This document shows, piece after piece, positions 60,792 through 61,691 of a stretch of DNA of 64,000 bases; positions within the stretch are counted from its first letter, which is position 1, and the number at the start of each line of letters is the position of its first letter. A model generated the notes under the pieces. That model did no database searches. It was given only the letters and a program-made list of their open reading frames with translations, and was not told where the DNA came from. The stretch covers positions 754,303 to 818,302 of the forward strand of contig JBBECT010000004.1 in the NCBI GenBank assembly GCA_040881665.1, read 5' to 3'. A program made the position numbers and the translations under genes. The stretch comes from Actinomycetota bacterium. GTDB taxonomy: Bacteria; Actinomycetota; UBA4738; HRBIN12.

Positions 60792-60806
60792 GTTGGCTGG
60801 CGATAC

Positions 60807-60839
60807 ATATCCGTATCGAGATACGGATATGCTATCATC
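60807..60839 (+). promoter_or_regulatory. Perfect 26-bp palindrome and promoter of XRE/NTase pair
   Basis: CATATCCGTATC (60807–60818), GA, GATACGGATATG (60821–60832) is a perfect inverted repeat. A -10-like TATCAT follows at 60834–60839 and the ATG is at 60846, so the transcript would be leaderless or nearly so. The palindrome is AT-rich in a GC-rich genome and ends just before the -10, as expected for an operator bound by the XRE protein. Confidence 0.75.
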
Positions 60840-60845
60840 AATCCC

Positions 60846-61178
60846 ATGAGGCCTGGTGCACGGCTGTTGTGGACGGCCCGTCGACGGGCCGGTCTCTCCC
60901 AACGGGCCCTCTCGCGTCGGTCGGGGGTCCCCCAGCCCACGATCTCCAGGATCGAGCGTGAGCTGGAATCCCCGAGTGCCGATCTGCTCGCGCGGCTCGT
61001 CGACGCCTGCGGGATGGAGCTCGCCGTGATCGAGCGCGCCGGGCGGGGCGTCGACCGCACCCTGATCCTGGAGCAGCTGCGCGGTTCTCCCTCTCAGCGA
61101 GGGCGTGACGCAGCGCGCGGAGCCGAAGTCCTCGAGCGCCTGGGAGCGGCACGCCCCGTCGATCGCGAGGCGGGGTGA
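60846..61178 (+). CDS. XRE-family antitoxin-like regulator
   Basis: A 110-residue protein. Residues 5–55 form a Cro/CI-type helix-turn-helix (LLWTARRRAGLSQRALSRRS, then VPQPTISRIERELESPSADL), then a short stretch (LARLVDACGMELAVIERAGR) as seen in XRE antitoxins. The C-terminal third is basic and helical (RGRDAARGAEVLERLGAARP). It is directly followed by a nucleotidyltransferase gene six bases later. The palindromic operator next to its own promoter fits autoregulation. In related toxin–antitoxin pairs (for example AbiE- or MNT-like) the HTH protein is the antitoxin. Confidence 0.85.
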   Translation: MRPGARLLWTARRRAGLSQRALSRRSGVPQPTISRIERELESPSADLLARLVDACGMELAVIERAGRGVDRTLILEQLRGSPSQRGRDAARGAEVLERLGAARPVDREAG

Positions 61179-61184
61179 TCGCTG

Positions 61185-61691
61185 ATGCCATTCGATCCCT
61201 ACCTGGCGCTCGCGACCCTTCAACGCCATGAGGTCCGCTTCGTCATGATCGGCGGGTTCGCGGGAGCGATCCTCGGCAGCGGCGTTCTCACGCAGGATCT
61301 GGACCTCTGCTATCGGCGCGACGACGAGAACCTCGAACGACTCGTGGCGGCGCTCGAGGAGCTCGATGCTCGACTCCGAGGCGTCGAGGAGGATGTGCCG
61401 TTCGTCCTGGACGCCGCCACGCTTCGCAACGGCGACTCCTTCACGTTCCAGACGACGGCGGGTCCGATCGACATCATCGGGACGCCGTCGGGAACCAACG
61501 GGTTCCACGATCTCGAGGCCGCAGCGCTGGACATGGATCTCGGCGATGGGGTCCGCGTGCGGGTCGCCTCGATCGACGATCTCATGCGGATGAAGCGGGC
61601 CGCGGCCCGGCCGAAGGATCTGATCCATCTGGAGCAGCTGGCTGCGCTCCGAGACCAGCTCGAGTCGAAGGAACCTCCTGCCGAGAGTTGA
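61185..61691 (+). CDS. Nucleotidyltransferase (MNT/AbiEii-like), probable toxin
   Basis: A 168-residue protein of the minimal nucleotidyltransferase superfamily: VMIGGFAGAILGSGVLTQDL, then DLCYRRDDENLERLVAALEE, giving the GS…T-x-D-x-D pattern (G-S-G-V-L-T-Q-D-L-D) needed for metal binding. A third acidic position is probably in GPIDIIG. It ends with SIDDLMRMKRAAARPKDLIHL, as in DUF6036/AbiEii-type proteins. Several such proteins are toxins that add nucleotides to tRNA or protein. It is paired with the XRE gene, which supports a toxin–antitoxin role, but that is inference. Confidence 0.82.
   Translation: MPFDPYLALATLQRHEVRFVMIGGFAGAILGSGVLTQDLDLCYRRDDENLERLVAALEELDARLRGVEEDVPFVLDAATLRNGDSFTFQTTAGPIDIIGTPSGTNGFHDLEAAALDMDLGDGVRVRVASIDDLMRMKRAAARPKDLIHLEQLAALRDQLESKEPPAES

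What the first reader, a model, noticed from the sequence alone, without database searches (positions are those of the whole stretch)
60807..61691. XRE–nucleotidyltransferase pair behind a perfect 26-bp palindrome
CATATCCGTATC-GA-GATACGGATATG ends one base before the -10, the XRE gene starts leaderless a few bases later, and a GSxxxTxDxD nucleotidyltransferase follows six bases after it. The design fits an autoregulated toxin–antitoxin or defence unit. The 168-residue toxin-like protein is fused to no other domain and may represent a little-studied branch.
Basis: partly seen in the sequence, partly recalled or inferred. Interest (0 to 1): 0.6.

Follow-up and report, generated by a model that had tools for sequence, protein, structure and literature searches.

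The report
Self-regulated bacterial nucleotidyltransferase toxin-antitoxin pair
A two-gene unit in an environmental actinobacterium pairs a small DNA-binding protein with an enzyme related to a tuberculosis tRNA-poisoning toxin, and comparison across about 70 loci shows that the partner carries a short, undescribed, swappable tail that probably holds the enzyme in check.

Summary
A 12+2+12 inverted repeat (60806-60831) ends one base before a -10 (TATCAT, 60833-60838); a leaderless XRE gene (60846-61178) and a 168-aa nucleotidyltransferase (61185-61691) follow. The repeat is better read as two adjacent operators. Relatives conserve ATAnC-N6-GnTAT overlapping the -10: 38 of 54 full-XRE loci, typically 9-10 nt from the start codon, including held-out loci; none of six relatives whose partner lacks the XRE domain reaches that cut-off. 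The pair is widespread in Actinomycetota (91 of 396 genomes), patchy, multi-copy and sometimes plasmid-borne, with empty sites in sister genomes. The enzyme's closest solved relative by profile and fold is M. tuberculosis toxin MenT1. The partner's ~40-residue C-terminal hairpin is the constant part: joined to XRE, to RHH, or alone, it sat beside this enzyme at 29 of 30 loci (the other is cut by a contig end). Most likely: an autoregulated type II toxin-antitoxin unit with a MenT1-like toxin and a modular antitoxin. Toxicity, substrate and neutralisation are inferred. XRE-nucleotidyltransferase pairing is known (S. suis Xress-MNTss); the module appears undescribed.

The parts
   Evidence: sequence; 8/8 core GATA-N8-TATC; the own-genome paralogue L002 also has two tandem dyads
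60820..60836 (.). promoter-proximal operator GATA-N9-TATC, whose right half-site is part of the -10
   Evidence: position and core conserved in relatives; GATA-N-TATCAT occurs once in the whole 2.46-Mb genome
60806..60831 (.).
60833..60838 (+). -10 element TATCAT (TAnnnT); start codon 7 nt further, leaderless
   Evidence: TAnnnT lies within 16 nt of the XRE start in 25 of 34 relatives vs 1.2% of random places
60846..61178 (+). XRE/Cro-CI antitoxin and autorepressor, 110 aa; HTH residues about 3-60, C-terminal helical hairpin module residues about 66-101
   Evidence: HTH_3 6e-12; AlphaFold2 helices 3-15, 19-26, 30-37, 45-54, then 71-78 and 82-101
61041..61148 (+). part of the XRE gene that codes the NTase-associated C-terminal module (DRTLILEQLRGSPSQR...)
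   Evidence: module kept without HTH in L022, L048, L081, L087, L125; fused to RHH in L089 and L118; beside this NTase in 29 of 30 loci
61185..61691 (+). MenT1-like minimal nucleotidyltransferase, 168 aa; G23-G24, T36, D38, D40, D96, K137, R142, D145
   Evidence: profile vs PDB: MenT1 5.4e-11; AlphaFold2 pLDDT 86, Foldseek best hit 8AN5_B E=6.3e-7, TM 0.66; conservation

Best explanation
This is an autoregulated two-gene toxin-antitoxin (type II-like) module. An XRE dimer binds two adjacent dyads; the proximal one covers the -10, so bound XRE blocks RNA polymerase. The transcript is leaderless and gives XRE first and then the nucleotidyltransferase. The XRE C-terminal helical hairpin (residues about 66-101) contacts and inhibits the enzyme. 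Free enzyme would act like MenT1: with D38/D40/D96 binding metal and K137 helping, it would transfer nucleotides to a cellular acceptor, most likely tRNA 3' ends, and stop translation. Shown here by computation: gene order, operator conservation and its link to the HTH domain, homology to MenT1, conserved active site, modular partner, mobility. Inferred: repression, toxicity, neutralisation by the module, tRNA as substrate.
For: 1) The pair is conserved as a unit: XRE directly upstream in 37 of 47 first-set loci, usually overlapping by 4 nt; XRE or its C-terminal module upstream on the same strand in 22 of 22 further loci, 20 of them held out. 2) Operator: 34 loci mean score 8.59 vs 6.64 (sd 0.13) in dinucleotide shuffles; 19 of 34 have a strong core within 12 nt of the start vs 0.4% of random places; held-out set 10.8 vs 7.2; 38 of 54 full-XRE loci vs 0 of 6 HTH-less loci reach the strong-site cut-off, p=7e-4 on scores; single occurrence in the own genome. 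3) Enzyme: MenT1 is the best hit by profile (E=5e-11) and by fold; MenT1 T39, D41 and K137, needed for its auto-phosphorylation (PMC11375011), align with T36, D38 and K137; MenT1 blocks growth and modifies tRNA (PMC10435456). 4) Modularity: the same C-terminal module with XRE, with RHH (PF01402 1.5e-6) or alone, beside this NTase. 5) Distribution like mobile TA units: patchy, up to 9 copies per genome, plasmid copies, a second pair in the own genome, sat-M23 neighbours without the pair in sister genomes.
Against: No toxicity data. One same-family genome (G005, L057) keeps the NTase at the same site without the XRE, and L029 also lacks one; both enzymes carry a deletion after residue ~63 but keep the catalytic aspartates, so the enzyme may not always need an antitoxin. 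MenT1's tested D152 aligns with H148, which is not conserved, and the motif-II arginine of DUF1814 toxins is absent in the window protein. The module does not resemble MenA1 by sequence. MenAT1 itself is not autoregulated (PMC11375011). Similar folds serve antibiotic adenylylation (ANT(2'')-Ia). One relative (L015) has D40 changed to A. The operator consensus was first read off the 34 loci, so only the held-out set is free of that bias.
Confidence: 0.65

Rival explanations
1. The unit is a self-repressed small-molecule (for example antibiotic) nucleotidyltransferase: XRE represses, an inducer relieves it, and the enzyme inactivates a compound; there is no toxin.
For: ANT(2'')-Ia is among the fold hits (E=5e-5) and Pfam Aminoglyc_resit matches 22 of 37 members weakly. 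Lone NTases exist (L021, L029). Makarova 2009 (PMC2701414) raised antibiotic inactivation for MNT-HEPN pairs.
Against: MenT1 is the better match by sequence and fold. A stand-alone 50-60 aa module without any DNA-binding domain is kept beside the enzyme, which a repressor-only partner does not explain. Up to 9 divergent copies per genome are unusual for a resistance enzyme.
Confidence: 0.15
2. A toxin-antitoxin pair whose target is not tRNA: the enzyme nucleotidylates a protein, or acts elsewhere, as claimed for S. suis MNTss, which was toxic only when exported to the periplasm.
For: Xress-MNTss is an autoregulated XRE-MNT pair (PMC8406773); the nucleotidyltransferase of HEPN-MNT systems modifies a protein (PMC11586414, abstract).
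Against: The closest homologue, MenT1, modifies tRNA. There is no HEPN or other protein target in the operon. MNTss was modelled on kanamycin nucleotidyltransferase, a different branch; no NTP_transf_2 or KNTase match was seen here.
Confidence: 0.15
3. The pair is a decaying or domesticated remnant with little present function in this genome.
For: Sister genomes lack it, and some relatives have stops inside, lost HTH or lost XRE.
Against: Both window genes are intact with every invariant residue, and the double operator and -10 are intact.
Confidence: 0.05

Closest known systems
MenAT1 of Mycobacterium tuberculosis (Rv0078B-Rv0078A; PDB 8AN4, 8AN5, 8RR5)
   Same: Enzyme is homologous over positions 17-156 and has the same fold; T-x-D-x-D, the conserved lysine and the R..D element align; a small antitoxin is encoded upstream.
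   Different: MenA1 is a 68-aa helical protein without a DNA-binding domain and MenAT1 does not autoregulate (PMC11375011, PMC10435456). Here the partner is XRE plus a C-terminal module without detectable similarity to MenA1, with a conserved operator.
Xress-MNTss of Streptococcus suis (Xre-MNT type II TA)
   Same: XRE gene followed by a nucleotidyltransferase gene; the XRE and the complex bind and repress their own promoter, which contains palindromes (PMC8406773).
   Different: MNTss was modelled on kanamycin nucleotidyltransferase and was toxic only when exported. The present enzyme belongs to the DUF6036/DUF2204/MenT1 branch. Direct sequence comparison with MNTss was not done.
AbiE / COG5340-DUF1814 type IV systems
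   Same: Regulator plus nucleotidyltransferase, autorepression through two inverted repeats (PMC3985639).
   Different: The AbiEi regulator is a winged-HTH COG5340 protein. The window enzyme has no PF08843 match and lacks the motif-II arginine.
HEPN-MNT type VII systems
   Same: Minimal nucleotidyltransferase in a two-gene mobile unit.
   Different: No HEPN gene here; in those systems the nucleotidyltransferase is the antitoxin.
Modular type II antitoxins
   Same: A DNA-binding domain combined with an exchangeable toxin-binding element (PMC10440598).
   Different: The particular module (DRxxIRxxLxLTPxER hairpin) matches no Pfam or PDB entry here.

Membership tests
MenT/DUF1814 (AbiEii) toxins | PF08843 AbiEii domain match | tested here: not met
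   Window protein: no PF08843 hit at E<=1; 10 of 37 relatives match, best 5e-7
MenT/DUF1814 (AbiEii) toxins | hG[G/S]-x-DhD catalytic motif with a motif-II arginine, and a motif-III lysine | tested here: inconclusive
   G23-G24-x13-D38-L-D40 and K137 present and near-invariant; motif-II arginine (MenT1 R37) absent in the window protein; defined in PMC3985639
MenT1-like nucleotidyltransferases | sequence-profile and fold similarity to MenT1 | tested here: met
   5.4e-11; 8AN5_B best, TM 0.66
MenT1-like nucleotidyltransferases | toxicity by nucleotide addition to tRNA | not testable with these tools
   needs expression and tRNA assay
Type II toxin-antitoxin system | two small adjacent co-oriented genes, patchy and mobile distribution | tested here: met
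Type II toxin-antitoxin system | antitoxin (or complex) represses own promoter through an operator | tested here: inconclusive
   operator conserved and tied to presence of the HTH domain; binding not measured
Type II toxin-antitoxin system | antitoxin binds and neutralises the toxin | not testable with these tools
   only indirect: C-terminal module kept with the enzyme when HTH is lost or replaced
Xre-MNT (Xress-MNTss type) | XRE gene followed by minimal nucleotidyltransferase, autoregulated | tested here: inconclusive
   gene order met, regulation inferred from the operator only; homology to MNTss not tested
HEPN-MNT | adjacent HEPN gene | tested here: not met
   neighbours are ATP sulfurylase and an M23 peptidase

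The most novel reading that the evidence does not exclude
The ~40-residue C-terminal hairpin (DRxxIRxxLxLTPxER) is an undescribed antitoxin element dedicated to MenT1-like nucleotidyltransferases. It is mounted on XRE, on RHH or on nothing, and it may neutralise the enzyme as MenA1 does, by steering the active-site threonine (T36) to auto-phosphorylation.
Probability: 0.4. Interest if true: 0.62.

Novelty: new variant of a known kind. Interest (0 to 1): 0.5.

Why it matters
If true, MenT1-like tRNA-modifying toxins would be widespread outside pathogens, in roughly a fifth to a quarter of sampled actinobacterial genomes, in an autoregulated form that MenAT1 itself lacks. The swappable antitoxin module would give a simple system for asking how a short helix silences a nucleotidyltransferase. 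It would also give annotators a way to name many 'hypothetical protein' pairs.

Tried and rejected
HEPN-MNT reading: rejected, no HEPN gene. Known defence system: PADLOC gave only generic HTH hits and a non-significant AbiEii hit. Phage origin: no hit in phage records, one partial relative in viral contigs. RNA family at the locus: none in Rfam. C-terminal module as a MenA1 homologue: no PDB match with two profiles. Sigma-70 consensus scan found no promoter here, but the consensus used demands a -35 match. Treating the sat-linked copies as one clean orthologous group: the enzyme tree separates L001 from L018 and L019, the XRE tree does not resolve it.

Full report
Observation. A 12+2+12 inverted repeat at 60806-60831 ends one base before TATCAT (60833-60838); the XRE start codon is 7 nt further and has no Shine-Dalgarno. 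XRE (110 aa) and a 168-aa nucleotidyltransferase are separated by 6 nt. The repeat is unique in the window and absent from shuffles. Perfect 12-bp arms are expected 0.25 times per window of this composition and were seen at about four places. The intergenic stretch is AT-rich (46% GC against 68% in the window).

What the palindrome is. Reading upstream regions of relatives showed that the 26-bp repeat is not itself the conserved element. It is two abutting dyads, GATAC-N6-GTATC (60802-60817) and GATA-N9-TATC (60820-60836). Relatives keep the promoter-proximal one, generally as ATAnC-N6-GnTAT. Its right half-site is part of the -10, so a repressor bound there would exclude RNA polymerase. Scores: 34 loci mean 8.59 vs 6.64, sd of the shuffle mean 0.13; strong core within 12 nt of the start codon in 19 of 34 vs 0.4% of random places. 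Because the motif was read off these loci, 20 further loci were fetched as a held-out set, plus two plasmid loci: mean 10.8 vs 7.2 in mononucleotide shuffles, with about 9 of the 22 carrying a perfect 13/13 site. Over all loci, 38 of 54 with a full XRE reach the strong-site cut-off and none of 6 whose partner lacks the HTH does (rank test p=7e-4); L089, where RHH replaces XRE, scores 10 and is borderline. In the whole 2.46-Mb genome GATA-N-TATCAT occurs once. The paralogous pair in the same genome (L002) has two tandem dyads as well. TAnnnT lies within 16 nt of the XRE start in 25 of 34 loci vs 1.2% of random places, so leaderless starts are the rule.

What the enzyme is. The window protein gives only sub-threshold Pfam hits: DUF6036, Aminoglyc_resit, DUF2204. 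Of 37 aligned relatives 35 match DUF6036, 26 DUF2204 and 10 AbiEii at E<=0.1. A profile of the 37 against the PDB finds M. tuberculosis MenT1 first (5.4e-11, positions 17-156). AlphaFold2 from a five-row alignment is confident (pLDDT 86, pTM 0.82), and Foldseek ranks the MenAT1 toxin chain first (6.3e-7, TM 0.66), with TM1012 and ANT(2'')-Ia behind. Invariant or near-invariant: G23, G24, G31, T36, D38, D40, N49, D96, K137, R142, D145. T36, D38 and K137 align with MenT1 T39, D41 and K137, which PMC11375011 found necessary for auto-phosphorylation. MenT1's D152 aligns with H148, which varies in the family.

What the partner is. XRE lies directly upstream in 37 of 47 first-set loci, typically overlapping the enzyme gene by 4 nt; in all 22 further loci XRE or its C-terminal part is upstream on the same strand. 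AlphaFold2 gives an HTH fold (residues 3-54) and a C-terminal hairpin (71-78, 82-101) of moderate confidence, on a three-row alignment. Six loci lack the XRE HTH yet keep the C-terminal part beside the enzyme. In L089 that part follows a ribbon-helix-helix domain (PF01402 1.5e-6), and L118 reads the same way by eye. Searching 396 genomes with a profile of the C-terminal part alone, 29 of the 30 loci fetched have this nucleotidyltransferase on the same strand nearby, and the thirtieth is cut by a contig end; in L118 the enzyme is frameshifted or truncated. The module is therefore the constant companion of the enzyme and the DNA-binding domain is replaceable, the pattern expected of a modular antitoxin. 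It has no Pfam or PDB match and does not resemble MenA1.

Distribution. 27 of 61 relatives and 91 of 396 phylum genomes carry the enzyme, up to nine copies per genome; copies sit on plasmids of Mycolicibacterium rufum and Miltoncostaea oceani. At the window's site, ATP sulfurylase is followed by XRE-enzyme in three genomes (G000, G001, G006), directly by the M23 peptidase in four (G002, G004, G010, G014), and by a lone enzyme with a shortened middle in one (G005). The trees are too weakly resolved to tell one insertion at this site from several.

How it most likely works. XRE dimers occupy the two dyads and shut the leaderless promoter; the C-terminal hairpin holds the enzyme inactive; loss of XRE frees the enzyme and derepresses the operon; free enzyme would add nucleotides to tRNA as MenT1 does. 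Operator, homology and modularity are computed. Repression, toxicity, neutralisation and substrate are inferred.

Known or new. XRE-nucleotidyltransferase toxin-antitoxin pairing was reported in Streptococcus suis (PMC8406773; a search for 'Xre-MNT' gave two papers), with an enzyme likened to kanamycin nucleotidyltransferase. MenAT1 has the nearest enzyme but a different partner and no autoregulation. No paper in the held library mentions DUF6036. This is a new variant of a known kind; the antitoxin module and the operator family are the parts that look undescribed.

Noticed in passing
G000:C4:282898-283499 (L002 1465-2300, minus strand): A second XRE-nucleotidyltransferase pair in the same genome, 44% identical enzyme, with two tandem GATAGC-N6-GCTAT dyads before the start codon.
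   Followed up: yes
L089/L122 (G251) and L118 (G261): Partner protein is a ribbon-helix-helix domain joined to the same C-terminal module; in L118 the enzyme gene is frameshifted or truncated.
   Followed up: partly
L022, L081, L087, L125: Stand-alone 50-60 aa module (RGVDxxQIRRQLRMTVxERVRxMVxAANxM) directly before the enzyme, with no DNA-binding domain and, in L022, L081 and L087, no operator; in L125 the enzyme side is cut by the contig end.
   Followed up: partly
L057 2244-2800 (G005) and L029 (G003): Lone nucleotidyltransferases without XRE; both have a Shine-Dalgarno-like start and a deletion after residue ~63 but keep the catalytic aspartates.
   Followed up: partly
L030 and L032: More distant relatives follow a different reading frame ending in a QERxAAVxxLRR helix, possibly another small partner for such enzymes.
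   Followed up: no
window 34235, 35938, 55378: Other perfect inverted repeats with 12-bp or longer arms; probably terminators, not examined.
   Followed up: no
L078 (Acidisarcina polymorpha plasmid pACPOL3, 116150-121048): A distant relative sits between two identical IS6 transposases with a recombinase, a transposon-like cassette.
   Followed up: no
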